Assembly (NCBI RefSeq): GCF_000526995.1
Contig: NZ_AZUI01000001.1
Coordinates: 3,142,001-3,206,000 of the forward strand
Source: Lacrimispora indolis DSM 755
Lineage (GTDB): Bacteria > Bacillota > Clostridia > Lachnospirales > Lachnospiraceae
Direction of reading: 5' to 3'
Length of the DNA: 64,000 nucleotides
The position numbers and the translations under genes were made by a program. The stretch's first letter is position 1. Every line of letters begins with the position of its first letter. Below are positions 26,843 to 43,470 of the stretch, piece after piece. The notes beneath the pieces are model-generated. The model did no database searches. It saw only the letters and a program-made list of their open reading frames with translations, and was not told where the DNA came from.

Positions 26843-27138
26843 TAACTTCATAAACAAATGTAAAAGCGTTGATAAGAACAAGTAGCAGTTTGAAGGACCA
26901 CACAGAAAGCAGCCGGCAGATGAGAGGCGCGTGGAAAACGGATTGTGAATACATCTTTGAGCTTCGTACCCAACGGCTGAGATGCCAAGTAGGCTGCGAC
27001 GGATTCCCGCACCCGTTATTGTGCTAGAGTATCGCATCAGGTACTCAAAGAGGTAGGCAGCGTGAGCTGTTTATAAACTTAAGGTGGTAACACGAGACTT
27101 CAGCCTCGTCCTTTTGATAGGACGGGGTTTATTTTTTT
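26843..27138 (+). ncRNA. T-box leader, tyrosine specifier (tyrS)
   Basis: A leader of about 300 nt. The specifier is TAC (26950-26952) in GTGAATACATC, a tyrosine codon fitting the downstream gene. The T-box bulge is GGTGGTAAC (27083-27091), followed by CACGAGA. The terminator is CCTCGTCC (27104-27111)/GGACGGGG (27120-27127) plus a T-rich tail. Uncharged tRNA-Tyr should stabilise the antiterminator and allow tyrS expression. Confidence 0.93.
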
Positions 27139-27157
27139 ATGAAAAAGGAGAATGACG

Positions 27158-28384
27158 ATGACGATTTATGAAGAATTAAAAGCCCGGGGCCTGATCGCCC
27201 AGGTGACAAACGAAGAAGAGATCAGTAAAATGGTAAACGAAGGAAAGGCCGTATTTTATATTGGATTTGATCCCACGGCAGACAGTCTTCATGTAGGTCA
27301 TTTTATGGCCCTGTGTTTAATGAAACGCCTTCAGGAGGCAGGCAATAAGCCTATCGCCCTTATCGGCGGAGGAACCGGTATGGTTGGAGATCCGTCCGGA
27401 AGAAGCGACATGCGTCAGATGATGACCGTGGATATGATCCAGCATAACTGTGACTGCTTTAAAAAGCAGATGAGCCGTTTTATCGACTTTTCCGAAGGAA
27501 AGGCCCTTATGGTCAACAATGCTGACTGGCTGCTGGAGTTAAATTATATTGATTTTCTCAGGGAGGTAGGCCCGCACTTTTCCGTTAACCGCATGCTGTC
27601 CGCTGAATGCTATAAGCAGCGTATGGAAAAGGGATTAAGTTTCCTGGAGTTCAACTACATGATCATGCAGAGCTATGACTTTTATGAGCTGTTTAACCGC
27701 TATGGCTGCAACATGCAGTTTGGAGGAGATGACCAGTGGAGCAATATGCTTGGGGGCACGGAGCTGATCCGCCGGAAGCTGGGAAAGGATGCCCATGCCA
27801 TGACCATTACCCTGCTTTTAAATTCCGAAGGAAACAAGATGGGAAAAACCCAGTCCGGTGCCGTGTGGCTTGATCCGGAAAAGACTTCTCCCTTTGATTT
27901 CTTCCAGTACTGGAGAAACATTGCCGATGCGGATGTACTAAAATGCCTGCGAATGCTCACCTTCCTTCCTATTGAGCAGATCGACGAAATGGACGGCTGG
28001 GAAGGCAGCCAGCTGAACGAGGCAAAGGAAATCCTGGCCTATGAGCTGACCAAGCTGGTACACGGGGAAGAGGAAGCCCAAAGATCAAAAGAGAGTGCCA
28101 GGGCACTGTTTACCGGAGGCAATGCGGCAGATATGCCAACCTGTGAGCTGGATGAGGCGGATTTTATTAACGAAAGCATTGACATCCTGTCCATTCTTCA
28201 AAAATCCGGCTTAGCACCCAGCCGTTCTGAGGCAAGGCGCAATGTGGAGCAGGGAGGAGTGATCGTGGAAGGAGAGGCTGTTTCTGATGCAAAGACTGTT
28301 TTCACAAAGGAGCAGTTGTCCGGAGATGGGATGATAGTAAAGAGAGGCAAGAAAAAGTTTGTAAGGGTGATTGCAAAGCAATAA
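27158..28384 (+). CDS. tyrS: Tyrosyl-tRNA synthetase
   Basis: A 408-residue class I synthetase. The HIGH-type motif is HVGHF near the N-terminus, and the KMSKS-type loop is [10 protein letters not shown]-terminal S4 RNA-binding domain begins near residue 340 ([13 protein letters not shown]). The ATG at 27152 is only one base from AAAGGAG; ATG 27158, 7 bases away, is the more likely start. Expression is under the upstream Tyr T-box. Confidence 0.96.
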
Positions 28385-28442
28385 AAAAGAAGATGCTGAA
28401 AAATAGATGCGATTCAGCTAAAACTTCACACCTTTTAGAGAT

Positions 28443-28482
28443 AGAACAGGGCATGCAAAAATGCATATCCTGTTCTTTTTTT
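28443..28482 (+). terminator. Intrinsic terminator after tyrS
   Basis: AGAACAGG (28443-28450) pairs with CCTGTTCT (28469-28476), with an inner GCAT/ATGC, then a T run. The remaining gap up to 28.70 kb shows nothing else recognisable. Confidence 0.88.
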
Positions 28483-28662
28483 GAAAATTGCTCCATGAGT
28501 TCTGTGCGGACCAATGAGATTAAAACCTAGAGTCCCGGTGATATTACAGCAGCCGGATGCTTGCCCCGTTCTGCTTCAATAAGGTTATGAGAAGGGGAGA
28601 GGGGGTTCCGGGTGCTGAAACTTGGGAGATCATAAAAATTCCGTCAATCTGCATAAAATTGA

Positions 28663-28739
28663 TTAAATGATTTAAACAATATGACAAAATATAAAAACCG
28701 CCAAATTATCCATTGACATATGGATTATATTACTATAAT
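28663..28739 (+). promoter_or_regulatory. Putative promoter and operator of the sulfoquinovose operon
   Basis: TTGACA (28713-28718) with TATAAT (28734-28739) at a 15-bp spacing, in a very AT-rich gap. Upstream, TTAAATGATTTAA (28663-28675) is a near-perfect palindrome and a candidate operator. Downstream of the promoter there are AAAAACC direct repeats and a Shine-Dalgarno GAGGAGG before the gene at 28856. The short spacer suggests a regulated promoter. Confidence 0.5.
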
Positions 28740-28855
28740 ATAAACAATAAAATTAAACATAAAAGACAAAAACCAAAAACCAAAAACAGAGCATTGAGTA
28801 AAATTGATTTAATTAATTAATAAAATTAATAAACATAATGAGGAGGACTTAGGCT

Positions 28856-29542
28856 ATGAAGTATTTTTTAGACAGCGCAAAGCTTGATGAGATTCAGTTT
28901 GCTTACAACACATTTGGTATTGATGGTGTGACAACGAATCCAAGGCATATCATGCTTAGCGGAAAACCATTTCTTACGGCAATCCATGGCATTGCAGATT
29001 GGATAAAATCCCAGGGACTGGATGGGTATGACCGTTTTCCTGTATCAGTGGAAATCAATCCTCACCTGGATGAAGCAGAGGCCATGATAACGGAAGCCAG
29101 AAAGATTGCTGCAATCAGTTCTAATTTTGTAATCAAAATTCCCGCAACAGAGGCAGGAATGACTGCGGCCAGAAAACTGGAGGCAGAAGGCATCCGCACG
29201 AATGTAACATTGGTGTTTTCACCTGCCCAGGCCATTCTTCCAGCCAGGAATCATTCTCTGTTCGTATCCCCATTCATCGGATGGAAGGAGGCCAACGGTG
29301 AGGATTGTAAGGCTTACATACAAAATATTGTGGATATCTATAAGAATTATGGCTTTTACAAAAAGACACAGATTATCTGTGCGGCGATCCGTACTCCCAA
29401 GCAGATTGTGGAATGTGCCGTGGCAGGAGCCGACATTGTGACAACCGGCCTGGATGTATATCGGGATACCATGAAACACGCTTATACCAACCAGGGGATT
29501 GAAACCTTTATCAATGCCTGGGATAACACCATTACAGAATAG
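28856..29542 (+). CDS. sftT: Transaldolase-family enzyme, probable 6-deoxy-6-sulfofructose transaldolase
   Basis: A 228-residue TalC/FSA-type barrel. MKYFLDSA (Asp6), DGVTTNP and the Schiff-base lysine Lys94 in FVIKIPATEAG are conserved, so it is an active aldolase/transaldolase. Its neighbours (sulfolactaldehyde-reductase-like enzyme, sulfoquinovosidase-signature GH31, TauE exporter) indicate the sulfo-transaldolase route: the sulfofructose C1-C3 unit is transferred to an aldose phosphate, releasing 3-sulfolactaldehyde. The substrate is inferred from context; sequence alone would only say FSA/TalC family. First gene of the operon, with GAGGAGG upstream. Confidence 0.8.
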   Translation: MKYFLDSAKLDEIQFAYNTFGIDGVTTNPRHIMLSGKPFLTAIHGIADWIKSQGLDGYDRFPVSVEINPHLDEAEAMITEARKIAAISSNFVIKIPATEAGMTAARKLEAEGIRTNVTLVFSPAQAILPARNHSLFVSPFIGWKEANGEDCKAYIQNIVDIYKNYGFYKKTQIICAAIRTPKQIVECAVAGADIVTTGLDVYRDTMKHAYTNQGIETFINAWDNTITE

Positions 29543-29580
29543 TGGGCGTAAGGAAATGAACGAGAAGGAGAGGCTGGGAT

Positions 29581-30435
29581 ATGAAGATCGGATTTATCGG
29601 ACTTGGCATCATGGGCGAGTCCATGTGTGAGAATATAGTGAAAAAGCATGATGATACAGTCTATGTGTTTGACTTTGTAAAGGAAAAGGCGGACTTACTG
29701 GCGGCTAAAGGTGCTGTGGCGTGCAGGGATTCCGTGGAACTGGCAAAGGTGTCTGATGTGATTATTTCAATGGTCCCCAAGTCAGAGCACTCCAAAGCAG
29801 TGTACACGGGGATCCTGGAAGTGCTGGATTCCACGAAAACCTGCATTGACATGAGTACCATAGATCCCAGCGTATCAGTGAAAATTGCAGAGATGGTGAA
29901 AAAGACAGGAGCCGGATTCATCGATGCCCCGGTGGTAAAGTCAAAACCTGCGGCTGTTGCAGGTAAATTAGGAATCTATGTGGGCGGCGATGAGGAAACC
30001 TATGAGAGAATGCGCCCCATCCTCCTTTACATGGGAGAAAATGTAAAGCATATGGGGGAAAACGGCAAGGGGCTGGTAATGAAGATCTGCCACAATGCCC
30101 TGGTATCCCAGATTCAGAATGGGGTCAATGAAACCATTGCCTTAGCGGCAAGAAATGGAATTTCCCTTATGGATTATGGGGAAGCCGTCTCCTATGGCGG
30201 GGGCCAGAACTTTTATCTGGATTCCAAGAAAGCCTTTCTTGATGCAGAGGATTATACGACTGCCTTCTCAGTGGAAAACATGGCAAAGGATGTAAGTATC
30301 TGCATGAAGCTGGCAGATGAATGCGGCTTTTCAATGCCTGGAGAGCAGGCAGTATGGGGGGTTTATGAAAAGGCTATGGAAGCCGGATATGGAAATGAGG
30401 ATTTTTGCGCTACTATAAAAATAGTAAAAAGATAG
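29581..30435 (+). CDS. 3-hydroxyisobutyrate-dehydrogenase-type reductase, probable 3-sulfolactaldehyde reductase
   Basis: A 284-residue beta-hydroxyacid dehydrogenase. The N-terminal GLGIMGESM dinucleotide loop binds NAD(P)H, and the catalytic lysine is Lys168 in KGLVMKICHN. The substrate loop, normally DAPVSGG, reads DAPVVKSKPAAV, placing Lys120 and Lys122 where the carboxylate is usually bound; extra positive charge would suit a sulfonate. E. coli YihU, the known sulfolactaldehyde reductase, belongs to this family. In this operon it would make 2,3-dihydroxypropane-1-sulfonate and regenerate NAD+. GAGAAGGAGAGG precedes ATG 29581. Confidence 0.8.
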   Translation: MKIGFIGLGIMGESMCENIVKKHDDTVYVFDFVKEKADLLAAKGAVACRDSVELAKVSDVIISMVPKSEHSKAVYTGILEVLDSTKTCIDMSTIDPSVSVKIAEMVKKTGAGFIDAPVVKSKPAAVAGKLGIYVGGDEETYERMRPILLYMGENVKHMGENGKGLVMKICHNALVSQIQNGVNETIALAARNGISLMDYGEAVSYGGGQNFYLDSKKAFLDAEDYTTAFSVENMAKDVSICMKLADECGFSMPGEQAVWGVYEKAMEAGYGNEDFCATIKIVKR

Positions 30436-30479
30436 GAGCGCTTAAAAAAGTCCGGTCACAGATTCAGAGGAAGATGATA

Positions 30480-31157
30480 ATGAGGAATATGATGATTAAA
30501 CGGTTAAACGAAGTCAACGATGTGGCAGTCCGCTCTGTTTTTGATGAGGAATTTAAAACATATGGACGGGTGGTCACAGGATATGATTTCTCGGACATGG
30601 TGTCTTACATGGAAGAAAAATCTCTTATACCGGAAAACGGCAACATATACCTGGCTTCTGTTCCTGAGATGGAACAGGTGCCTGGGGCAGCTTTTTTAAG
30701 AGATGGGTTTTACGGCGGGATGGACATACAGGTAGGGTACTGTAATGGAAGAAATACCGCTTACAATGGATTTGAATATCACAAAGGCAGTGAGATCAAT
30801 ATCGCCGTGACGGATTTCATGGTGGTTTTAGGCCATGTATGGGAGATTAAGGATAATACATACAAGACAGAGGATGCAAAGGTGTTTTTTGTGGAAAAAG
30901 GGACAGTTGTTGAGATGTACCAGACCACGCTCCACTTGTCACCCTGCCGGGTAACGGATGAAGGGTTTAAAGATATTATAATCCTTCCAAGGGGAACGAA
31001 TACGCCTTTGGAGCATAAGCCGGAGGCAGCGGAGGACGAAGGAAAACTGCTTTTGCAGCGCAACAAATGGGTCATTGCCCATCCGGAACGGGAACCCTTG
31101 ATCAGGCAGGGCGCTGTTCCGGGACTTATAGGGGAAAATAAGGAACTTAAGTATTAA
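30480..31157 (+). CDS. DUF4867-family (cupin-like) protein, candidate sulfoquinovose isomerase
   Basis: About 225 residues. I recognise the DUF4867 family seen in sugar operons. The GFEYHKGSEINIAVTDF segment followed by VVLGHVWEI has the His...Glu...His spacing of a cupin metal site. The frame stays open upstream into the previous gene; several ATGs (30474, 30480, 30489) are possible, and 30480 has AGAGG at 9-nt spacing. It lies within the proposed sulfoquinovose operon, where an aldose-ketose isomerase is required. My recollection is that a DUF4867 protein serves as SQ isomerase in Bacillus sulfo-transaldolase clusters, but a second isomerase-like gene at 37282 competes for this role. Confidence 0.7.
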   Translation: MRNMMIKRLNEVNDVAVRSVFDEEFKTYGRVVTGYDFSDMVSYMEEKSLIPENGNIYLASVPEMEQVPGAAFLRDGFYGGMDIQVGYCNGRNTAYNGFEYHKGSEINIAVTDFMVVLGHVWEIKDNTYKTEDAKVFFVEKGTVVEMYQTTLHLSPCRVTDEGFKDIIILPRGTNTPLEHKPEAAEDEGKLLLQRNKWVIAHPEREPLIRQGAVPGLIGENKELKY

Positions 31158-31201
31158 GGGAATTGAAAAGCAAAAACAAATAATATATCAGGAGGTTGTA
31201 T

Positions 31202-32272
31202 ATGAAAAAGAGAATATTAGCAATGGTACTTGCAGCTGTTACAGCAGTTTCCCTGGCAGGATGCGGTGCGTCCGCCACACAATCGGAACCATCCGGAAAT
31301 ACCTCGAAGGAGTCAACCGCAGCCGCGGGAGGCCAAAGCGGTGCAACCATCAAAATTATATGTCCTTACGGCGTAGGCGGCACTGCTGATTCCATTGCGC
31401 GAAAGTATGCGCTGGTTGCCGGTAAGGTTCATCCGGAATACAATTTTATCGTGGAAAATATGACAGGCGGAGACGGTTTTTCTGCGGCAAACTATTACAC
31501 TGATTTGGATCCGTCCACAAAGGAACTGCTGGTTTATGGTTATGGTGTGGCATACCGTCATGATCTTGGCAAGAAATATCAGACTGAGGTTGTGGACTTT
31601 GACCGCAGTGACATATATCCGGTTGCATCCATTGATGACAGGACTTGGATTATGTACGGAAAACCAGGCACGACCCTGGCGGATATCCTGGAGAAATCCA
31701 GGAATGGCGGCATCAAGATGTCTGGCGGGAATCCCCTTTCTGATCCCCATCTGGCATTAGGCTCCCTGGTAGCTTTGGAAGGCGGTAAAGTGATGGTGGT
31801 TCCCTATGACGGAGGCGCTGCCCAGAAGAAGGGGCTGACTGACGGGGAAGTGGATGTGTTTGTTGGCACTACTCAGGTCGCCTTAGAGGATGTAGAGGCA
31901 GGGACAATGACTCCGATCCTTGCATTCTCTGATCAGGCTTTTGAAGGCTTCAAGAGTCCTGATGGGGAAATCACTGTTCCGGGAATTGCCGGTGAAACCA
32001 AGGCTCCCGAACTGAATGGATCCGCAGATTATACAGGTTCCATTTTGGCGGCAGGCGGATTTATTGCAGTACGTACCGGTGCGGATCAGGCATGGATCGA
32101 TCAGGTTGCACAGATTTCCAAAGATGTATGGGCGGATCCTGAATACAGTGACTGGATCAGTGAGATTAAGCTGAATAAGTTTGAAGTGTATGGAGAAGAT
32201 GCAAAAGTACATCTGGAAGAAGCTTGTGCCAAGGCGGTTGCTGCATTTGACACCTTGAGCGGGCAGCAGTAG
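31202..32272 (+). CDS. TctC-type substrate-binding lipoprotein of a tripartite tricarboxylate transporter
   Basis: A 356-residue exported protein with signal peptide and lipobox SLAGC (Cys21), a Ser/Thr-rich tether, then the Bug/TctC binding domain (PYGVGGTADSIAR at the anion loop, VVPYDGGAAQKKGL later). TTG 31196 is in frame but sits in the ribosome site CAGGAGG; ATG 31202 is the start. It is followed by tctB and tctA homologues. TTT systems usually carry carboxylates. Position in a sulfoquinovose operon suggests it captures SQ or an SQ glycoside, an anionic ligand of comparable charge. Confidence 0.9.
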   Translation: MKKRILAMVLAAVTAVSLAGCGASATQSEPSGNTSKESTAAAGGQSGATIKIICPYGVGGTADSIARKYALVAGKVHPEYNFIVENMTGGDGFSAANYYTDLDPSTKELLVYGYGVAYRHDLGKKYQTEVVDFDRSDIYPVASIDDRTWIMYGKPGTTLADILEKSRNGGIKMSGGNPLSDPHLALGSLVALEGGKVMVVPYDGGAAQKKGLTDGEVDVFVGTTQVALEDVEAGTMTPILAFSDQAFEGFKSPDGEITVPGIAGETKAPELNGSADYTGSILAAGGFIAVRTGADQAWIDQVAQISKDVWADPEYSDWISEIKLNKFEVYGEDAKVHLEEACAKAVAAFDTLSGQQ

Positions 32273-32350
32273 GAGACGGCTGGAAGATCGGCCGGGAGGG
32301 CTTTTGCCGGAATGCCCTCCTTGCCATTTTCTTCAGCAATTGGAGAAAGG

Positions 32351-32830
32351 ATGTGTGATTCAGTGAAATTTAAGATTAAGACTTATTTTTGGTCCGGGCT
32401 TATCATGGGACTGTTTAGTATCGCAATGCTGGTAGTCATGCCGTCTGAAGTGCGCCTTCCCATGTACGACTCAGGTGCGCCAAGTCCGCGGATCATCCCG
32501 GGTATCTGTCTTACAGGAGTTTTGATCTGCTCCGCTGTACTGCTGATACAAAGCTTAATATTTAAAAAAGATAGAGTGATAGAATTTGACTGGAAAAAAG
32601 AGAAGCCCTGTATTTTCATGATTTTATTGCTGTGTTTCTTTACTTTCCTGACAATCAAAGCGGGATTTATTCTTGCCGTAGTCATCGTGTTTCCTGTGAT
32701 GTTATTTTACTGCGGTGAGAGGAAGCCATTTATTTACATATTCACTGTGGCAGCAGGAATCGGTATCTTTTACCTGTTCAAGTATGTATTCCACGTTTCA
32801 TTGCCTGGTTTTCCGGGATTTGGAGGTTGA
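32351..32830 (+). CDS. TctB-type small membrane subunit of a TTT transporter
   Basis: About 159 residues with four hydrophobic segments, the size and topology of TctB. GAPSPRIIPGICLTGVLI (~35-52) is the usual conserved segment (fuller form: P...FPR..P). The in-frame frame extends upstream to 32312, but GGAG (32342-32345) points to ATG 32351. It ends three bases before the tctA start, typical of a tctCBA unit. Confidence 0.85.
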   Translation: MCDSVKFKIKTYFWSGLIMGLFSIAMLVVMPSEVRLPMYDSGAPSPRIIPGICLTGVLICSAVLLIQSLIFKKDRVIEFDWKKEKPCIFMILLLCFFTFLTIKAGFILAVVIVFPVMLFYCGERKPFIYIFTVAAGIGIFYLFKYVFHVSLPGFPGFGG

Positions 32831-32833
32831 GTT

Positions 32834-34378
32834 ATGGGAGATATTCAGCAGATTCTGCTTGCACTGCAGCAGGTTTTTACGATTGGTAATTTAGCGGTCA
32901 TTCTTGGCGGACTGATTCTGGGAATGATTGTAGGATGTATTCCGGGACTTAGCGTAACCCTTGGCATCATTTTACTTCTTCCCCTCACCTACAGCTTTTC
33001 TTCGCCGGACACGGCCATCATTTCCCTTCTGGCTGTTTATGTAGGCGGTATGTATGGAGGATCAATCAGTGCGATCACCCTTAATACGCCGGGAACGAAC
33101 TCGGCGATTGCAACAACATTTGACGGATACCCCCTGGCAAAGAAAGGGAAGGTAAAAAAAGCCCTGGACACCTCTTTGTTTGCATCTACCTTCGGCGGTC
33201 TTTTTTCCGCTCTGCTCCTCATGGTGTGCGCTTCCCTCATAACAAAACTGGTGTCAAAATTTGCATCGGCAGAATACTTTTCCATGGCAATCCTGGGCAT
33301 TTCGCTGATTGCAGGCGTAAGCGGCGAAAGCCTGGCAAAAGGAATTATATCCGGTCTGCTTGGCATCTTAATGGCTGCCATTGGAGCTGATGCGGTGACA
33401 GGTGTGATGCGCTTTACCTTTGGCATAGACTCTTTAAGGTATGGCATTGATATGCTGCCTGCCATGATCGCGCTGATTGCATTGACCCAGGTGGTCCAGA
33501 AGCTGCGGGATTTTGTTCTGGCAGAAGGGAATCTGGATGATATCACGAAGATTGACAAGGTTGGTTTAACACTGAAAGAAGCTAAATCAATTATTCCGGC
33601 CTGCCTTCGTTCTTCCTGCGTAGCCTCCTTTTTAGGCGCAATGCCGGGAGTGGGAGGCGGTGTGGCACAGTTTATGTGTTATAACGAGTGCCGACGGGCC
33701 TCCAAGCGTCCCCAGGATTTTGGAAAAGGGAGCCTGGAAGGAATTGCAGCAGCCGAGGCGAGCAACAATGCTGTGGTTGGTTCTGCCATGATTCCCCTGC
33801 TGACCCTGGGGATTCCCGGAGACGGCGTGACGGCGCTGCTGCTTGGAGCGTTTATTCTTCATGGAATTCAGCCGGGTCCCACCATGTTTACCAAGCAGGG
33901 CGTTATCGCTTATTCCATTATCATAGGCTGTCTGGTGGCAAATATTTTTCTCTATCCCATCGGCATGGTGCTGACCCGTGCAGTGGCAAAAATCGTGCAG
34001 GTGCGTTATACCTACCTGGCGCCTGTCATCATCATCTTTTGTTTTGCCGGAGCATTTGCAGCTACGGGAAACGTAAAAGAGCTGGTTTTAACGGCAGCTA
34101 TCCTTATTTTCAGCTATTTTCTCACATTGCTGGATATTTCATCTACTCCTCTGATGCTTGGGATGATTCTTGCCGACATTATGGAGATGAACTTTGTAAC
34201 CAGTATGATGAGCTATGATAAAGACTATCTGATTTTCTTCAAGCGTCCGATTTCCTGTGTGATTCTGATATTAACGGTAATTCTTGTGATTTCCATGCTC
34301 CGGATCAATAAGAAGGTGGAGGCTCTGAATCAGGCTCAAATGGAGGAAATGAAGAAAGAGGGCATGCAGAAGGGATGA
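32834..34378 (+). CDS. TctA-type large membrane subunit of a TTT transporter
   Basis: A 514-residue permease of about 12 segments. The duplicated family motifs are present: GCIPGLSVTLGI (~35-46), GGMYGGSISAITLNTPGT (~70-87) and, in the second half, GAMPGVGGGVAQFMCYNE and LGIPGDGVTALLLGAF. It forms the transport channel with TctB and receives substrate from the TctC lipoprotein. It lies in the middle of the sulfoquinovose operon between the catabolic enzymes and the GH31 gene, so it is a plausible importer for the pathway. Confidence 0.93.
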   Translation: MGDIQQILLALQQVFTIGNLAVILGGLILGMIVGCIPGLSVTLGIILLLPLTYSFSSPDTAIISLLAVYVGGMYGGSISAITLNTPGTNSAIATTFDGYPLAKKGKVKKALDTSLFASTFGGLFSALLLMVCASLITKLVSKFASAEYFSMAILGISLIAGVSGESLAKGIISGLLGILMAAIGADAVTGVMRFTFGIDSLRYGIDMLPAMIALIALTQVVQKLRDFVLAEGNLDDITKIDKVGLTLKEAKSIIPACLRSSCVASFLGAMPGVGGGVAQFMCYNECRRASKRPQDFGKGSLEGIAAAEASNNAVVGSAMIPLLTLGIPGDGVTALLLGAFILHGIQPGPTMFTKQGVIAYSIIIGCLVANIFLYPIGMVLTRAVAKIVQVRYTYLAPVIIIFCFAGAFAATGNVKELVLTAAILIFSYFLTLLDISSTPLMLGMILADIMEMNFVTSMMSYDKDYLIFFKRPISCVILILTVILVISMLRINKKVEALNQAQMEEMKKEGMQKG

Positions 34379-34424
34379 TTTTTGTGATCATGATGTTCTG
34401 ATGGATTTCAAACGGAGGTTACAT

Positions 34425-36446
34425 ATGGAATTTGTTCGTAAAGGAATGGACTGGGAGCTAAATGCAGACGGCCGCAGGATACTCAGCTGTAAAAGCGGCA
34501 AGCCAATGATCTATGTGGGATACGGAGAAGAATCCGTGGATATGTACAGAGGCAATTACAGGATAGAGGACTATGTGGTGGAACGGCGTCCCTTAAGGGT
34601 TACCGGAATAACGGAGGAGCCGGAGGGCATTTCCATGGACTTGGAGGGCCAGATCGTGCTTACGGTTAAGGTTGAAGGAGAGCTTGCGGTCCTTTCCTTC
34701 CGGCAGATCAATCCGGCCATTAACCGGTTCTGGTTCAGAGTGGAGGCAGACGAGAAAGAATCCTGCTATGGCTGCGGAGAGCAGATGTCTTATTTTAATT
34801 TGAGAGGAAGGCATTTTCCCTTATGGACCTCTGAGCCGGGAGTGGGAAGGGATAAGACCACCTATGTGACATGGCGCTCGGATGTGGAAAATAAGGCGGG
34901 AGGGGATTATTACAATACCAACTACCCACAGCCCACCTATGTGTCCGCCAGGCACTATTACCTTCATGTGGATTCCACTGCTTATGCTGATTTTGACTTC
35001 AGGAACAGGGATTTCCATGAGCTTCAGATATGGGAGGTTCCGGCTTCCATACGCATTGAGGCAGCCCCCGGCTTCCTGGAGCTTTTAGAGAAACTGACAG
35101 CCTTTTTGGGCCGGCAGCCAGAGCTTCCGGAGTGGGTGTACAATGGCCTGATCATAGGCGTACAGGGGGGAAATGACCGTTCCTTGGGAATCCTTGAGAA
35201 GACTCTGGACAAAGGAATCAAGGTATCCGGCCTGTGGTGCCAGGACTGGTGCGGAAAAAGGGTCACATCCTTTGGAAAACGCCTTCAGTGGGATTGGAAA
35301 TATCATCAGGAAATGTATCCGGACCTGCCAAAGCGTATACAGGAGCTTCACAGCAGGGGAATAAAATTCCTTGGCTATATCAATCCTTATCTGGTAAACG
35401 ACGGGGAATTATATAAGGAAGGAAAGGCCAGGGGGTATTTTGCCACAAAAGGGGATGGAGGGGATTATCTGGTAGATTTCGGTGAGTTTTACTGCGGAGT
35501 GGTGGATTTGACCAATCCGGATGCCTATGAATGGTACAAAAATGAAGTGATCAAAAAACACAGCCTGGATATTGGAATTGACGGCTGGATGGCTGACTTT
35601 GGAGAATATCTCCCAACGGATGACATCAGGCTATACAGCGGAATATCCCCCATGAAAGAACATAACCGCTGGCCCGCTCTCTGGGCAAAGTGCAACTATG
35701 AAGCGGTAAAGGAAAGCGGAAAACTGGGAGAGGTGGTCTACTTTATGAGGGCTGGAGGAACCGGAAGCCAGAAGTACTGCACCCTGTTGTGGGCAGGAGA
35801 CCAGTCCGTGGACTTTACCATTCATGACGGCCTTGCAACGGTTATCTGTGCGGCCTTAAGCGCCGGTATGACCGGCTGCGGCTTAAGTCACAGTGATATC
35901 GGCGGATACACCTCCCTGTTTGACAACAAAAGAACCAAGGAGCTGTTTTTAAGATGGGCTGAGATGGCCGTATTCACTCCAGTGATGCGCACCCATGAGG
36001 GGAACCGGCCAGACACTAATTTCCAGTACTATGAGGATGAGGACTGTATGGAACAGCTGGCAAGGCTGGTGGAGGTTTACACCATGCTGGCGCCCTACAT
36101 GAAAGAGCTGGTAAAGGAAAATGCGGAAAAGGGAATCCCGGTTCAAAGGCCTCTGTTCCTCCACTATGAGGAGGATAAAAGAGCTTACGAAGTCCAGTAC
36201 GAATACCTGCTGGGCCCGGATCTTCTGGTGGCTCCTGTGTATTTGGAAGGACAGGATACCTGGGATGTCTATCTGCCTGAAGGAGAATGGATTCACCTGT
36301 GGACAGGTGAAGAATACAGGGGCGGGGAGGCAAAGGTGGCTGCACCGGTTGGAGATACCCCGGCATTTTACTTAAAGTCCTCAGAATACGCCCCTTTGTT
36401 TGAAGAGATCCGCAGAACCCATGGGAAGCGGGAAAGCGGACGGTAA
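34425..36446 (+). CDS. sftG: GH31 sulfoquinovosidase
   Basis: A 673-residue cytoplasmic glycosidase that would release sulfoquinovose from its glycosides. The barrel contains QDWCGKRVTSFGKRLQW: Gln273, Arg286 and Trp289 have exactly the spacing of Gln288, Arg301 and Trp304, the sulfonate-binding trio of E. coli YihQ. The nucleophile is Asp391 (GWMADFGEY), the acid/base Asp459 (WAGDQ), and Tyr495 in SDIGGYTSL corresponds to YihQ Tyr508. Offsets are constant (13-15). No signal peptide. Upstream ATG 34401 is in frame, but CGGAGG (34411-34416) sets ATG 34425. TSUP exporter follows 3 bases later. Confidence 0.93.
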   Translation: MEFVRKGMDWELNADGRRILSCKSGKPMIYVGYGEESVDMYRGNYRIEDYVVERRPLRVTGITEEPEGISMDLEGQIVLTVKVEGELAVLSFRQINPAINRFWFRVEADEKESCYGCGEQMSYFNLRGRHFPLWTSEPGVGRDKTTYVTWRSDVENKAGGDYYNTNYPQPTYVSARHYYLHVDSTAYADFDFRNRDFHELQIWEVPASIRIEAAPGFLELLEKLTAFLGRQPELPEWVYNGLIIGVQGGNDRSLGILEKTLDKGIKVSGLWCQDWCGKRVTSFGKRLQWDWKYHQEMYPDLPKRIQELHSRGIKFLGYINPYLVNDGELYKEGKARGYFATKGDGGDYLVDFGEFYCGVVDLTNPDAYEWYKNEVIKKHSLDIGIDGWMADFGEYLPTDDIRLYSGISPMKEHNRWPALWAKCNYEAVKESGKLGEVVYFMRAGGTGSQKYCTLLWAGDQSVDFTIHDGLATVICAALSAGMTGCGLSHSDIGGYTSLFDNKRTKELFLRWAEMAVFTPVMRTHEGNRPDTNFQYYEDEDCMEQLARLVEVYTMLAPYMKELVKENAEKGIPVQRPLFLHYEEDKRAYEVQYEYLLGPDLLVAPVYLEGQDTWDVYLPEGEWIHLWTGEEYRGGEAKVAAPVGDTPAFYLKSSEYAPLFEEIRRTHGKRESGR

Positions 36447-36449
36447 TCT

Positions 36450-37226
36450 ATGAGATACGCAGGATTTTTTCTCATCATATTGCTGTCCAATATCATCCAG
36501 GGAATCACAGGCTTTGCCGGGACCATCCTTGCAATGCCTCCCAGCCTGATGCTGGTGGGTTACAACACAGCCAAACCGGTGCTCAACGTGCTGGGATTGC
36601 TGTCAGGCTTCTATGTGTTTGCAGGACACAGGAAAAGCGTGTGTTGGAGCGAGCTTAAAAAAATCGTGGCAGTGATGGCAGCCGGCATACTGGGAGGAAT
36701 TTGTTTAAAGGGGTTCTTTGAAGGACAGGAGCAGCAGCTATACCGGATGCTGGGGGTATTTGTCATCCTTCTTTCCGGGCAGGGGCTTGTAAAGCTGCGG
36801 CACGAAGCAAACGGACCAACGGATAAAAAGGGGGAAGAAGCCGGAAATCCAGGGAGTGCCCAGGATACAAAGACCTCCACGGCCATGTACCTGCTGCTGG
36901 GCCTTGCAGGCCTTGTACATGGCATTTTCGTATCAGGAGGCCCGCTTCTCATAGGATATATGACCAAAAGGCTGAAAGACAAGGTGAGCTTCCGGGCCAC
37001 TATTTCCACTGTCTGGCTGGTGTTAAATACCATCGTTCTGCTGGATGATATACGCATGGGTCTGTGGAGTCCGGATTTAGTCAGGACGCTGGTCATGTCC
37101 CTCCCCTTCCTGCTGGCCGGCATGTTCATGGGAGGCAGACTTTATGCCAAAATGAGTCAGAGGCTTTTTATGATGATTACCTATGTGCTTCTGTTTATCT
37201 CTGGTATTTCCCTTCTGGGAAAATAG
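36450..37226 (+). CDS. TSUP/TauE-family exporter, candidate C3-sulfonate exporter
   Basis: A 258-residue membrane protein with two homologous halves of the TauE/SafE family (QGITGFAGTILAMPPSL in the first half, VHGIFVSGGPLLIGYM in the second). TSUP proteins accompany several sulfonate pathways as exporters of sulfolactate, dihydroxypropanesulfonate or sulfite. In this operon the end product would be dihydroxypropanesulfonate. It starts three bases after the GH31 stop, strongly implying shared expression. Confidence 0.85.
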   Translation: MRYAGFFLIILLSNIIQGITGFAGTILAMPPSLMLVGYNTAKPVLNVLGLLSGFYVFAGHRKSVCWSELKKIVAVMAAGILGGICLKGFFEGQEQQLYRMLGVFVILLSGQGLVKLRHEANGPTDKKGEEAGNPGSAQDTKTSTAMYLLLGLAGLVHGIFVSGGPLLIGYMTKRLKDKVSFRATISTVWLVLNTIVLLDDIRMGLWSPDLVRTLVMSLPFLLAGMFMGGRLYAKMSQRLFMMITYVLLFISGISLLGK

Positions 37227-37281
37227 GTTACGGGATAATATGGGAAGAATATTGCATTGATTTCAAAGGAGATAAAAAAAT

Positions 37282-38619
37282 ATGAAATTTGAAGTTGCAT
37301 ACATACCAATCGGTGTACCTACCTTTCATTTGGAAAGTGCGCAGATTGAATTTGAGAAATCCATCCGTCTGATTTCTTCTCTGACAGAGGAGGCCGTGTA
37401 TCCGGAAAACATGCTTTTATCCATAAATGACTTAAATTCCTATTTGGATACCATAAATCCGGGTCTTATCATCCTCCAGAACATCACCTTTGCCAATGCT
37501 GCCTATGCAAGCGAAATCCTTAAGCGCTTCACCTGTCCGGTGCTTTTGTGGACACTGAGGGAGCCGGTGATCGACGGAGGCCGCTTAAGGCTTAATTCCC
37601 TTACCGGAGCATATTCTGCGGGTAATGCGCTCCGCGCTTTCCGTGACGGTGAGTTTGAATATATTTTCGGCTCACCGGAGGAGGAGGCGGTGGCTGCCGG
37701 CGTAGGCGCTGCCATCAGGGCAGCCAGGGTAAAGCATCAGTTAAGGGATCTAAAGATGGCCTCCATCGGTCATACTCCCCAGGGTTTTGGATTTGGAAGG
37801 GCATTGGATGCAGAACTGATGCATGGATTCGGTGTGACATTGGACTCCATCGAAGCCAGGGAGCTGATTGATAAGGCCAAATCCTATACAGACGAGGAGT
37901 GCGCTTCCTATCTGGAGGAGGCAAAAGCCATGATGGGGAGCTTAGACGAGACGCCGGAGAAGAATGTGAAGGACTTTGCAAGGCTTTATAAGGCTTACAG
38001 GATGTATGTGGAGGAGAACCGGATCGGAGCCCTGTCTTCACGGTGCTGGCCGGACTTTTTTACAGCATTCGGAACTCCTGTATGTTCTGTGCTGTCCCTC
38101 CTCAATGCATTGGGGACGGCGGCCAGCTGCGAGTCTGATGTATACGGGGCTTTGTCCATGTATATAGGAATGCAGCTGACAGGCAATGCCGCATTTTTCG
38201 GAGACCCTGTTTCCATGGATGAAAAGGAAGGTACCATCACCTTCTGGCATTGCGGCATGGCACCCTGCACCCTGGCAAGAAAGGATACCGGTGCAGAAGT
38301 GGGTGTACACCCCAACCGCAAGATCGGGCCGGTTATGGACTTTGGCTGCCAGGCCTGGGATAAGGTTACTGTTTTCCGGGTAGGCCGCAGGGCTGATGGA
38401 AGCTTCCGCTTTTTCATTGCGTCAGGGGAAGCTCTGGACCGTCCGAAGCAGTTTTGCGGGACCTCGGTAGTGGTTAAGACGGATCATGATGCAAAGGATA
38501 TTATTGTAAAAAGCGTAAAATCCGGATGGGAACCCCATTTTGTTGTGATCTACGGAGACGTGGCGGAAGAGCTTACTATGCTGGCTCATATGCTGGGCAT
38601 GGAGGCATGTATTTATTAG
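37282..38619 (+). CDS. L-fucose/L-arabinose isomerase-like protein, candidate sugar isomerase
   Basis: A 445-residue protein with FucI/AraA-type organisation: an N-terminal Rossmann-like domain, a middle domain with ALSSRCWPDFF and a C-terminal beta-barrel with ITFWHCGMAPCTLA. Metal-binding positions expected of FucI-type enzymes appear around Glu/Asp in this WPDFF region and His in FWHCG, but full active-site identity cannot be established by eye. AAAGGAG precedes ATG 37282. Last catabolic gene of the operon; it could be the SQ-to-sulfofructose isomerase, or act on the sugar freed from a different glycoside. Confidence 0.75.
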   Translation: MKFEVAYIPIGVPTFHLESAQIEFEKSIRLISSLTEEAVYPENMLLSINDLNSYLDTINPGLIILQNITFANAAYASEILKRFTCPVLLWTLREPVIDGGRLRLNSLTGAYSAGNALRAFRDGEFEYIFGSPEEEAVAAGVGAAIRAARVKHQLRDLKMASIGHTPQGFGFGRALDAELMHGFGVTLDSIEARELIDKAKSYTDEECASYLEEAKAMMGSLDETPEKNVKDFARLYKAYRMYVEENRIGALSSRCWPDFFTAFGTPVCSVLSLLNALGTAASCESDVYGALSMYIGMQLTGNAAFFGDPVSMDEKEGTITFWHCGMAPCTLARKDTGAEVGVHPNRKIGPVMDFGCQAWDKVTVFRVGRRADGSFRFFIASGEALDRPKQFCGTSVVVKTDHDAKDIIVKSVKSGWEPHFVVIYGDVAEELTMLAHMLGMEACIY

Positions 38620-38652
38620 TGTGGGGTGCAGGGGGGATATCAAAGGTTCTTC

Positions 38653-38681
38653 TTGATTTTAACAGTGTTTACGCCTATACT
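38653..38681 (+). promoter_or_regulatory. Promoter of the ROK regulator
   Basis: TTGATT (38653-38658), 17-bp spacer, TATACT (38676-38681), 41 bases before the gene. Confidence 0.65.
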
Positions 38682-38722
38682 GGTGAGAGGATATGATATG
38701 TTGAGAAACGGAGGAAAAAGAT

Positions 38723-39928
38723 ATGGGCTATACGGGAATTAATCTGGAAAATGTTAAAGTGAGCAACCGCAGCGCCATATTAAAACTCCTTAATGACCAC
38801 GGAGCCATGTCAAGGAAGGATATTGCCATGGAGCTGGGCCTGACTCCGGCTACCGTTACCTTGATCTGCACAGACTTAATTGCCGCCGGAATTCTGCTGG
38901 AAAAGGGTGAGATGGCTGAGGAGAAGCGCGCAGGCAGGAAAAAGGTATCGATTGATATCAATTACCGGTACAAATATGTGCTTTCTGTCAGCATTGAGGC
39001 ACCGGAAACCTGCATCGCCATCAGCGATTTAAAGGGGTGTCTTAAGGGATTGAAAAAGATTAAGACAGAGACTTCTCTGGAGCCTCAGGCATTTTTAAAG
39101 AAGATCGCTGACGAAAGCAAGCATTTTATGTGGGAGCAGGGGGTATCCAGGGATGCTGTCTTAGGTGCAGGCTTATCAATTCCCGGACCTGTGAAAAGGG
39201 ATACAGGGGTGAGTCTCCATGCGTACCGCATATGGAACGAGGCAGTGCCGGTGGGGGAATATATGAAAATGTATTTAAACCTTCCTGTGGTGGTGGATAA
39301 TAATGTAAAGGCTTTTGCAGAAGGGGAACTCATATACGGCACAGGTAAAAAGCAGGAGAACCTTCTGTTTATTAAATGGGGGCCAGGCGTAGGATCTGCC
39401 ATTATCATACAGAACAAGATTTACGACAGCCAGAACTCCAAGACAGCGGAGATCGGCCATTACATTGTGGAACCGGGAGGTCTGCCCTGCCGCTGCGGCA
39501 GACGGGGCTGCTTAGAAACCCATGTCGCCACCCATGCCATTGCTGACCGGGTAAGGCGGGCCTGCACCAGAGAGACCATGCCCGGGCTGTATGCATTTGT
39601 GGAGGGTGATGTGGACAGGATAGAGGTAAGGAACATGGAACAGTGGATTGAAGTAGATGATCCGGGACTCCAGAAGATCATTGACGACATTGTGGAGCGT
39701 CTGGCACGTACCGTGGTGAATACCATCACTTTACTGGCACCGGATAAGGTCATTATCTATGGATTCATGTTTGAAATGGATAATATCCAGAAACGTTTCC
39801 TGAACTTCTGTACCTACTACGATCCCCTGTATAATGGAAGTTATATCCTGAAGTCGGAACTGAGCGACAGAATTGGATATATCGGTCCTCTGGCAATTGC
39901 GGTAAATGAGCTGTTTTTGGGAACATGA
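38723..39928 (+). CDS. ROK-family transcriptional regulator (NagC/XylR type)
   Basis: 401 residues. The N-terminal winged helix (~15-75; SRKDIAMELGLTPATVTLI is the HTH) is followed by a ROK sugar-kinase-like domain (~85-400) with the zinc motif GGLPCRCGRRGCLETH. It follows the sulfoquinovose operon on the same strand but has its own promoter, and precedes the alpha-mannosidase gene. Control of the SQ operon is the most economical reading; control of the mannosidase locus is possible. GGAGGAAAAAG precedes ATG 38723. Confidence 0.9.
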   Translation: MGYTGINLENVKVSNRSAILKLLNDHGAMSRKDIAMELGLTPATVTLICTDLIAAGILLEKGEMAEEKRAGRKKVSIDINYRYKYVLSVSIEAPETCIAISDLKGCLKGLKKIKTETSLEPQAFLKKIADESKHFMWEQGVSRDAVLGAGLSIPGPVKRDTGVSLHAYRIWNEAVPVGEYMKMYLNLPVVVDNNVKAFAEGELIYGTGKKQENLLFIKWGPGVGSAIIIQNKIYDSQNSKTAEIGHYIVEPGGLPCRCGRRGCLETHVATHAIADRVRRACTRETMPGLYAFVEGDVDRIEVRNMEQWIEVDDPGLQKIIDDIVERLARTVVNTITLLAPDKVIIYGFMFEMDNIQKRFLNFCTYYDPLYNGSYILKSELSDRIGYIGPLAIAVNELFLGT

Positions 39929-39944
39929 GAGGCGGTTTTTAATA

Positions 39945-39988
39945 AAAATCAGCTGGAAGATCTGAAATGATCGACCGGCTGATTTTTT
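39945..39988 (+). terminator. Intrinsic terminator after the ROK gene
   Basis: AAAATCAGC (39945-39953) pairs with GCTGATTTT (39978-39986), followed by T residues. Confidence 0.85.
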
Positions 39989-40034
39989 GTGCTGTCATAA
40001 GTACGGCCTGTTTTATGATTTTTTACGCTTTTTT

Positions 40035-40154
40035 AACCGAATCAAGAAAGTCCCCCACTTCAAATGCGAAAAGCATTAAGCGGTGGGTGAGGGGACTTGC
40101 TGCTATTCGGTTATGCCCGATGGAGCGGGGCAGGGTCTCCCCCGCACTATCGGG
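40035..40154. repeat. Mosaic palindromic repeat, copy A1 (two compound hairpins)
   Basis: In the 428-base gap before the mannosidase gene. Hairpin 1: AACCGAAT (40035-40042)/ATTCGGTT (40105-40112), inside it AAGTCCCC (40048-40055)/GGGGACTT (40091-40098), CCAC/GTGG and ATGC/GCAT. Hairpin 2: CCCGAT (40116-40121)/ATCGGG (40149-40154) with GCGGGG/CCCCGC inside. Positions 40059-40081 are identical over 23 bases to 50683-50705; the second hairpin's 5' half (40113-40135) matches 54272-54294 at 21 of 23. A GCGAATATTCGC palindrome follows at 40184-40195. It may be a mobile repeat or a structured RNA. Confidence 0.75.
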
Positions 40155-40307
40155 GACACTGTGAGCAAGTAGCGAAGCGGATTGCGAATATTCGCTTGAC
40201 ACCGCATCAATGGCTGTACCTTTCTTCATGCTGAAATTTAACAACAACTGCGAAAATTCTGCGACAACTTAACAAACATTGCATAGTCACCAGCCCATGA
40301 GATATCG

Positions 40308-40313
40308 TATAAT
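40308..40313 (+). promoter_or_regulatory. Candidate -10 element of the alpha-mannosidase gene
   Basis: TATAAT (40308-40313) lies 49 bases before the chosen start, with no good -35 at 17 bp, consistent with an activator-dependent promoter. Confidence 0.4.
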
Positions 40314-40356
40314 GAGGAAATATGATGATTTTACTGAAAAAGGGAGGGATATGCAG

Positions 40357-43300: not shown

Positions 43301-43470
43301 CCTCCTGCCGGGCGGCAGCCGGTTTTAAAATCAGCAGCGTGTGGGAAACTGCCATGGAGGAGGAGTTGAAGGGAAGTGAGTCTGTTCCGGTGAACTTGCT
43401 TGAAAATAGCAGTGAAATGCTCTTACATTTTGCGCCTTTTGAGATTAAGACCCTTCGGCTGGTTCCATAA
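40357..43470 (+). CDS. GH38 alpha-mannosidase
   Basis: A cytoplasmic enzyme of about 1037 residues that removes alpha-linked mannose. The zinc site begins with FGQSHLDLAW (His253, Asp255), the nucleophile is Asp365 in WLPDCFGFNGQLP, and HQFHDIIPGTS supplies a further metal-site histidine. The C-terminal beta-sandwich domains complete the usual length. The open frame reaches back to 40279, but GGGAGGG (40342-40348) selects ATG 40357 (or 40351), and the upstream part overlaps a promoter-like TATAAT. No signal peptide, so it acts on imported oligosaccharides. It heads the locus with the HAD protein, ABC importer and GH105. Confidence 0.92.
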   Translation: MMLAAERDKRINIWIEELKNHLFDMLDEVAFTGFTTKQHFTYEEAIKQEFYPMPQGTSWGGKWEYGWFQTEIVMPREAEGKRIFLHPEVGGEMLVWVNGVTAGSKDLKHDGITLTRCAKAGERFFVVAESYAGHGPRLEKGGPCPPWRTAVPEPPAFQVKTGTSDFGIWNEDAFQLLMDAVTLYKLSQGLDPKSLRAMKVNQGLLEFTFLADFELDREARDESFRKARKRLAPLLSCVNGSTAPEFTIFGQSHLDLAWLWPWEETKRKCARTLSTQIALSDEYEDYKFLLCEPPIMENVKENYPELYGRLLQKVEDGAFIPEGGMYVESDTNLVSGESLIRQCLYGRKWFLEELGKESVLVWLPDCFGFNGQLPQIMKGCGIRYFATQKVSRALKGCDLFPYNNFWWEGIDGTRILTHFYKENNARLDPLDLITRWQEDRVQQENIDSFLYPFGFGDGGGGATREMAETARRVKDLEGAPRTSMEGPVRFFQRLEEEGSVTEVYRGELYLPWHRGTYTSQAWIKKENRLTERRLREAELLNSIACFTENGENRREELESLWKVLLFHQFHDIIPGTSIARVYEDTREALKSTGEKALGFYEEARKQITGSEADGILLFNSLSWEREELAEIPAREEERLVRSGRFPVTQKIGDRLLIPVKVPSCGYTDLVGRDQAVYTGISEEKVCRIYEQDGWFVLENGLVKIIVDDLGQVRSALDQETKIEYVDGIANRFFLYQDINVDYDAWEMSSFYKNVPAEPGNRAELAIEETGPLKVVLLVKRMIHQSSLIQRITLSYNSRRIDFVTAIDWQETHKLLKTAFPVTIRTEEAFEEIQFGYIKRPTHQNRRYDADRYEVCNHRYTAMTEPGRTAAVLNDSKYGISTNGNSMELTLLKAPVWPDMNADKGIQEFTYSFYIESRNFTESGVVREGMQLNCPLAFWGKGIGEKEFFRISEENVILETVKMAEDGENHMILRFYEAIGKHTSCRAAAGFKISSVWETAMEEELKGSESVPVNLLENSSEMLLHFAPFEIKTLRLVP

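What the first reader, a model, noticed from the sequence alone, without database searches (positions are those of the whole stretch)
28856..38619. Complete-looking sulfoquinovose operon of the transaldolase type
One strand carries a TalC/FSA-like transaldolase, a YihU-family reductase, a DUF4867 protein, TctCBA, a GH31 with the sulfoquinovosidase signature, a TauE-type exporter and a fucose-isomerase-like protein, in an operon bounded by a terminator and promoter upstream and a ROK regulator downstream. Established: GH31 SQases, YihU-type sulfolactaldehyde reductases and sulfofructose transaldolases make up the sulfo-transaldolase route. Inference: this organism ferments plant-derived SQ to dihydroxypropanesulfonate, a precursor that other anaerobes turn into sulfite and H2S.
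Basis: partly seen in the sequence, partly recalled or inferred. Interest (0 to 1): 0.88.

Follow-up and report, generated by a model that had tools for sequence, protein, structure and literature searches.

The report
Plant-sulfosugar fermentation cassette with swapped importer
This stretch encodes a known gut-bacterial pathway that takes apart sulfoquinovose, the sulfur sugar of green plants, but the genes that probably carry the sugar into the cell are of a kind that we did not find linked to this sugar in the papers we could search.

Summary
Window 28856-38619, with the co-oriented ROK gene to 39928, is a complete-looking sulfofructose-transaldolase (sulfo-TAL/sulfo-SFT) cassette: SftT, SftR, SftX (DUF4867), TctCBA, SftG (GH31), TauE-family protein, SftI, ROK regulator. 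The 'fucose-isomerase-like' protein is the sulfoquinovose isomerase. SftT is 62% identical to a structurally solved SF-transaldolase; SftG keeps the YihQ residues examined. The pathway is known; Enterocloster clostridioformis ferments sulfoquinovose to DHPS. The part I did not find in print is the importer. TctCBA belongs to one TctA clade (11 of 11 sft-linked rows on one branch, 100/100; one TctA near an SftT in a Planctomycetota contig lies outside). Of 10 genomes with this TctC among 363, 9 also have SftT (own genome included); 25 of 397 family genomes have SftT. In the two nearest cassettes a sodium:solute symporter fills the same slot, with 75-81% DNA identity on both sides. Importer types rarely co-occur (1 of 80 loci) and change at least six times on a core-enzyme tree. 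I infer that TctCBA imports sulfoquinovose or its glyceryl glycoside. A palindrome-like box above the promoter, single in the 6.38 Mb genome, is a candidate ROK operator. Substrates, transport and regulation are untested.

The parts
28659..28679 (+). Candidate ROK operator TTGATTAAATGATTTAAACAA (imperfect palindrome)
   Evidence: Conserved in L011, L012, L023; 1 match with up to 3 mismatches in the whole 6.38 Mb genome; in window shuffles mean 0.01. Function inferred.
28713..28741 (+). Sigma-70-like promoter, -35 TTGACA
   Evidence: Consensus scan, 10 of 12; ATTGACAT conserved in 4 aligned cassettes. Not evidence of function alone.
28856..29542 (+). [quoted passage not shown]
   Evidence: 290 bits to BmSF-TAL 8bc3, 62% identity; D6 E66 K94 N116 S138 W143 R179 in 81 of 81 rows.
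29581..30435 (+). sftR, probable 3-sulfolactaldehyde reductase (beta-hydroxyacid dehydrogenase)
   Evidence: PF03446+PF14833; 143 bits to the sulfolactaldehyde reductase model NF012005, cut-off 348; 30% to YihU, KICHN motif at the YihU KLINN position.
30474..31157 (+). sftX/sqvB, DUF4867 cupin (start codon inferred; open frame from TTG 30405; searches used 30477-31157)
   Evidence: PF16161 257 bits; 239 bits to 9gyy, E-x-H-x3-E and TTLH patterns kept in the alignment (ligands named in PMC11968277).
31202..32272 (+). tctC, lipoprotein substrate-binding protein
   Evidence: Lipobox LAGC by eye; model matches TctC/Bug proteins; 55-76% identity to 8 sft-linked TctC.
32351..32830 (+). tctB, small membrane subunit (start inferred; ORF from 32312)
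   Evidence: PF07331 54.7 bits.
32834..34378 (+). tctA, large membrane subunit
   Evidence: PF01970 448 bits; sft-linked clade 100/100.
34401..36446 (+). sftG, GH31 sulfoquinovosidase, no evident signal peptide (by eye)
   Evidence: 1211 bits to 6pnr, the E. rectale SftG of PMC11968277; same letters as YihQ at 301, 304, 405, 472, 508.
36450..37226 (+). TauE-family membrane protein, presumed DHPS exporter
   Evidence: PF01925 75 bits; substrate inferred.
37282..38619 (+). sftI/sqvD, sulfoquinovose isomerase
38723..39928 (+). ROK-family transcriptional regulator, last gene of the cassette
   Evidence: PF00480 124 bits plus weak HTH hits; 88% identical in L011 and L012.

Best explanation
A self-contained sulfo-TAL cassette for anaerobic fermentation of sulfoquinovose (SQ) glycosides. 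Proposed order: TctC binds SQ or sulfoquinovosyl-glycerol outside; TctAB imports it with an ion gradient; cytoplasmic SftG releases SQ; SftX may help ring opening or anomerisation (role unknown); SftI makes sulfofructose; SftT moves the dihydroxyacetone unit to glyceraldehyde-3-phosphate, giving fructose-6-phosphate (to glycolysis) and sulfolactaldehyde; SftR reduces that to DHPS with NADH; TauE exports it. The ROK protein represses from the box above the promoter until a pathway sugar binds. Shown by sequence or structure comparison: family identity of SftT, SftG, SftI, SftX and the TctC fold. Inferred: substrates of SftR, TctCBA and TauE, and ROK control. The confidence given is for the pathway assignment; for TctCBA as its importer it is about 0.7.
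For: SftT 62% identical to BmSF-TAL with its residues kept (residues from PMC11659671). SftG 1211 bits to the solved and assayed E. rectale enzyme, same letters as YihQ at 301, 304, 508. SftI metal ligands. SftX matches 9gyy. Importer: one TctA clade; TctA hits with E up to 1e-120 fall in two tiers, five at 690 bits or more in sft clusters, six at 405-417 bits with no SftT, SftR, SftX, SftG or SftI nearby; 9 of 10 genomes with sft-type TctC also have SftT against 25 of 397 in the family; same slot as SSS in L011 and L012; none of the 7 loci (of 80) with sft-type TctA has an MFS_2, SSS or ABC gene of my clusters nearby.
Against: No substrate was tested. SftI and SftR fall below the NCBIfam cut-offs (416.6 of 700; 143 of 348). 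In two genomes of one genus (G832, G944) TctCBA stands apart from sft genes (L120, L126); one has SftT on another contig, the other, 76% complete, has none found. L070 (Planctomycetota) has a TctA about 3.3 kb from an SftT, on the other strand, that falls outside the clade. The clade's outgroup rows include long branches that the tree program flags. TTT systems are best known for carboxylates (recalled). TctC pocket residues were not mapped.
Confidence: 0.9

Rival explanations
1. The pathway is sulfo-TAL, but TctCBA imports another compound (a C3 sulfonate such as sulfolactate or DHPS, or a carboxylate) and SQ enters through an unlinked transporter.
For: Putative sulfolactate importers SlcGFH are TTT systems (PMC10507020 passages). 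TctCBA stands apart from sft genes in L120 and L126.
Against: No other importer gene lies in the cassette; a sodium:solute symporter fills the very same slot in the closest cassettes; importer types co-occur in only 1 of 80 loci. The cassette is expected to export rather than consume a C3 sulfonate.
Confidence: 0.2
2. The cassette serves a related sulfosugar or a non-sulfonated 6-deoxy sugar, not SQ.
For: DUF4867 and PF02952 also occur in other aldose/ketose clusters (PMC11968277 passages); the same genome has a second DUF4867 beside an FSA-type aldolase and an FGGY kinase piece.
Against: SftG and SftT carry the residues of assayed or solved enzymes. The second copy has no GH31 or SftI-like ORF within the 3.6 kb examined, and its aldolase is 44% identical to SftT.
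Confidence: 0.05
3. A decayed or silent remnant.
For: Among 25 sampled genomes of the genus only the own genome carries SftT (E up to 1e-70), so the cassette is dispensable and probably mobile.
Against: All reading frames intact, catalytic residues and promoter region conserved.
Confidence: 0.03

Closest known systems
sulfo-TAL (sulfo-SFT) cluster of Agathobacter/Eubacterium rectale and of Enterocloster clostridioformis YL32 (PMC11968277, PMC8397734, PMC12330013; sections and passages)
   Same: SftT, SftR, SftG, SftI (and SftX in E. rectale); DHPS as expected product; Lachnospiraceae hosts
   Different: Importer called SftA in PMC12330013, class not stated in the passages read; here TctCBA. 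Gene order of those clusters was not compared here, so they may hold TctCBA too.
sulfo-TAL of Priestia (Bacillus) megaterium/aryabhattai (SqvA, SqvB, SqvD)
   Same: SftT 62% identical to BmSF-TAL; DUF4867 matches 9gyy
   Different: Isomerases of the Bacillus and Paenibacillus loci L076 and L089 are 39 and 37% identical and those loci have no SftR hit
Bifurcated sulfo-TK/TAL of Faecalicatena (PMC11659671)
   Same: SftI of a Faecalicatena contorta locus 67% identical (L090); SftT with the same active-site numbering
   Different: No transketolase genes in this cassette
Tripartite tricarboxylate transporters (TctCBA/Bug; SlcGFH)
   Same: Three subunits, lipoprotein binding protein of TctC/Bug fold
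   Different: Separate TctA clade tied to SftT; sulfosugar as proposed substrate

Membership tests
sulfo-TAL pathway | SF-transaldolase with catalytic triad D6/E66/K94 and sulfonate-orienting W..A..R | tested here: met
   D6, E66, K94, S138, W143, R179 present and invariant in 81 of 81 rows; triad numbering as in PMC11659671; which W, A and R are meant is inferred
sulfo-TAL pathway | GH31 sulfoquinovosidase with R301, W304, Y508 and D405/D472 (roles of these positions recalled, except Asp405, named catalytic in PMC11968277) | tested here: met
   Identical to YihQ at these positions; 1211 bits to 6pnr
sulfo-TAL pathway | PF02952-type SQ isomerase with metal ligands | tested here: met
   E284, D308, H419 align with FucI E337, D361, H528 (ligand numbers recalled)
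NCBIfam SQ isomerase equivalog NF048012 | Score above curated cut-off 700 | tested here: not met
   416.6 bits over the full length, the only NCBIfam hit
sulfo-TAL pathway | Sulfolactaldehyde reductase (SftR) or dehydrogenase | tested here: inconclusive
   Relatives of this beta-HAD in 62 of 80 loci, 60 of them at 200 bits or more, PVVKS motif in all rows printed, but 30% to YihU and below the NF012005 cut-off
sulfo-TAL pathway | Growth on SQ with DHPS formation | not testable with these tools
   Shown for E. clostridioformis YL32 in PMC12330013, not for this organism
YihU equivalog (NF012005) | Score above curated cut-off 348 | tested here: not met
   143 bits
TTT transporter | TctA, TctB and a TctC-fold binding protein encoded together | tested here: met
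   PF01970 and PF07331 above cut-off; TctC fold by structure, PF03401 below cut-off
SQ importer | Binds and transports SQ or its glycoside | not testable with these tools
   Association and slot evidence only

The most novel reading that the evidence does not exclude
A separate branch of tripartite tricarboxylate transporters has become the dedicated importer of sulfoquinovose or sulfoquinovosyl-glycerol in sulfo-TAL cassettes of anaerobic Firmicutes and perhaps Treponema. The cassette has an exchangeable importer position in which four unrelated transporter families (MFS_2, SSS, ABC, TTT) have replaced one another while the enzymes stayed the same.
Probability: 0.7. Interest if true: 0.5.

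Novelty: new variant of a known kind. Interest (0 to 1): 0.36.

Why it matters
Dietary sulfoquinovose is a selective nutrient that ends as DHPS and then H2S through other gut bacteria. Its enzymes are well studied, but its uptake in these anaerobes is barely described in the papers I opened. A transporter clade that tracks the pathway gives a marker gene and a testable binding protein, would add a sulfosugar to the substrates of TTT transporters, and suggests that uptake changes more readily than the pathway it feeds.

Tried and rejected
Rejected: L-fucose or other isomerase role for 37282-38619 (its only NCBIfam hit is SQ isomerase, though below cut-off). Rejected: that the second DUF4867 in the genome (G000 6154105) is another SQ cluster; its neighbours are an FSA-type aldolase and an FGGY kinase C-terminal piece. 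Led nowhere: phmmer of SftI against PDB gave no hit, hence the AlphaFold model and hhalign; a search for YihU Arg123 listed 6 papers, none with 'Arg123'; 'sulfoquinovose' with 'Lacrimispora' gave 0 papers; 'sulfoquinovose' with 'tcta' listed 20 of 30 papers, apparently matching primer letters (none opened for this). The Foldseek and VIA lists for SftI hold only arabinose/fucose isomerases as strong matches. Direction of the importer exchange could not be decided: Tct proteins are about as diverged as the core enzymes between window, L023 and L013, which fits long co-inheritance as well as a later swap. A second, weaker operator-like copy near 28804 was seen in the alignment but scores poorly (5 mismatches in L011 and L012). 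GC content gives no sign of transfer. Dropped before counts: 22 of 80 loci showed no importer by my clusters, many on short contigs; ABC detection rests on three clusters only; L077 had both MFS_2 and ABC. Transporter families were checked with Pfam for a sample of the proteins only, the rest assigned by similarity clusters. In one search L095 (same genome as L074) and hits under 150 bits were left out. In one search 23 rows were used of the loci held; one row combines results for L093 and L094, two contigs of one genome, and 3 of its 20 inner branches are open.
Full report
What is there. The window lies at 3142001-3206000 of a single-contig genome of 6,383,701 bases. The host is probably a Lacrimispora (Lachnospiraceae): the nearest named TctC is from Lacrimispora brassicae, 92%; this is an inference. 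Ten co-oriented genes run from 28856 to 39928 with short gaps. Pfam gives TAL_FSA, a beta-hydroxyacid dehydrogenase, DUF4867, TctB, TctA, GH31, TauE, fucose isomerase C-terminal domain and ROK; the gene at 31202 is TctC by fold only.

The pathway is known. Reviews and primary papers describe sulfo-TAL in Bacillus, Enterococcus gilvus, Clostridium symbiosum and E. rectale (PMC9594981, PMC8397734, PMC12890257; passages and sections). E. clostridioformis YL32 turns SQ into DHPS at about 1:1 (PMC12330013, passages). In human gut genome bins the four core genes occur in 23 of 4,930 species (PMC8397734, section read). Here SftT (E up to 1e-70) occurs in 25 of 397 sampled genomes of the family and in 1 of 25 of the genus, the own genome being counted in both, so the cassette is patchy.

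Unit and regulation. Against the two nearest named cassettes, Clostridium citroniae (L011) and Clostridiales bacterium 1_7_47_FAA (L012), DNA similarity of about 75-81% begins at 28643 and ends at 39931 or 39921; no match longer than 60 bases was reported beyond these ends within 28000-40500. The unit is therefore promoter region through ROK gene. The upstream alignment holds a conserved box TTRATTAAATRAWTTAAACAA and ATTGACAT. With up to 3 mismatches the box occurs once in the window and once in the genome, at this place. Near matches (up to 4 mismatches) lie close to SftT or to the first cluster gene in L011, L012, L015, L023, L033, L034, L049, L058 and L062, about 1.5 kb upstream in L030, and not obviously so in L022 and L082; the other loci of the 93 scanned have none at that level. 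I infer a ROK operator.

The importer. In L011 and L012 the long similarity breaks between the end of sftX (31153/31157) and the start of sftG (34414; L012 has one more short break inside the TauE gene): there the relatives hold a sodium:solute symporter (PF00474) and the window holds TctCBA. The same X-SSS-G order is seen in L048, L076 and L080. On a core-enzyme tree of 23 rows the importer label needs at least 6 changes among 22 labelled rows, and the window is sister to the two SSS cassettes (100/100).

The Tct clade. Searching the window TctA (E up to 1e-120) in 397 family genomes and 391 class genomes gave two tiers: five genomes at 690 bits or more (G000, G229, G177, G317, G527), each with sft genes beside TctA (in G229 the cluster is apparently split over two contigs), and six hits at 405-417 bits (G268, G384, G070, G173, G594, second copy of G527) with no SftT, SftR, SftX, SftG or SftI hit in the 13-14 kb taken around them (two have a ROK-like neighbour). 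In the tree of 22 TctA, 11 sft-linked ones are one side of a branch of length 1.59 with 100/100 support; three paralogues of the own genome are outside, and so is L070, a Planctomycetota TctA about 3.3 kb from an SftT. The program flags long branches among the outside rows. A look with TctC (E up to 1e-60) in 363 genomes of the order found 10 genomes; SftT is present in 9 of the 10, all 9 of the near-complete ones, and not found in the tenth, 76% complete (one of the nine SftT holds a stop). Of the seven genomes not yet seen under these handles, five have sft genes beside TctCBA or TctC and two of one genus (L120, L126) do not. The samples overlap: G000, G177 and G317 recur, and G922 and G900 have the contig lengths of L032 and L029.

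Mechanism. SftG shows no signal peptide by eye, so the glycoside is probably cut inside and the importer should accept SQ-glycerol, SQ or both; PMC11968277 describes the same order for its pathway (passage). TctC is a lipoprotein by its LAGC motif. TTT transport of a sulfonate has a precedent as a proposal: SlcGFH for sulfolactate (PMC10507020, passages). A sulfite/sulfonate transporter, SqwE, is named as exporter in the sulfo-TK route (PMC12890257, passage); that the TauE protein here exports DHPS is my inference.

Literature check for the importer. Searches 'sulfoquinovose' with 'tripartite tricarboxylate' (1 paper), with 'tripartite' (6 papers), with 'solute symporter', 'SftA' or 'importer' (20 of 41 papers listed), and 'tripartite tricarboxylate transporter' with 'sulfonate' (16 papers) showed, in listings and in the passages that I opened, no report of a TTT or SSS importer of SQ. 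Most of the listed papers were not opened. The library holds only open-licence papers; Frommeyer et al. 2020 is not held and figures are not visible, so this is not proof of absence.

Verdict. The finding is real and correctly read; as a pathway it is a new member of a known kind, and the importer makes it a new variant. Confidence 0.9 that the cassette is sulfo-TAL for SQ, about 0.7 that TctCBA is its importer.

Noticed in passing
44 of 66 GH31 rows of the sft loci, for example L019-L022, L024, L026, L027, L035-L041, L043-L047: These carry a different GH31 (mostly about 465-610 bits to the window's SftG) with Gln in place of YihQ Arg301; 33 of the 44 have Arg in place of Tyr438, against 1 of the 20 rows with Arg301. 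Perhaps a second way of holding the sulfonate, or a different glycosidase. The 7 Tct loci and 6 SSS loci are all of the Arg301 type.
   Followed up: partly
L121 2135-6733 (Pfam); L124 4241-9056 (by resemblance): Tct-type sft clusters that also hold a glycyl-radical enzyme (PFL-like plus Gly_radical), a radical-SAM activase and an iron-containing alcohol dehydrogenase: a possible extended route beyond DHPS.
   Followed up: partly
L095 (same genome as L074); L123: SftT and SftI beside a second transaldolase-like protein; L095 also has split transketolase genes (PF00456; PF02779/PF02780): like the bifurcated sulfo-TK/TAL cluster of Faecalicatena, here with TctCBA.
   Followed up: partly
G000:C1:6154105-6155388 (L001): Second DUF4867 gene next to an FSA-type aldolase and an FGGY kinase piece, with no sulfosugar genes in the 3.6 kb seen: a natural comparison for the unknown role of SftX.
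   Followed up: partly
L120 5195-10454: sft-type TctCBA directly beside an FGGY sugar kinase instead of sft genes; the genome's SftT is on another contig.
   Followed up: partly
window 26860-27116: T-box leader (Rfam RF00230, 101 bits) upstream of the tyrosyl-tRNA synthetase gene at 27152-28384.
   Followed up: partly
window 40279-43470: GH38 alpha-mannosidase downstream of the cassette and outside the conserved unit.
   Followed up: partly
L040, L041, L050, L073, L075, L079, L081, L083, L084, L086: sft loci whose isomerase-like protein scores only 104-126 bits to the window's SftI: a distant isomerase type in the same pathway setting.
   Followed up: no
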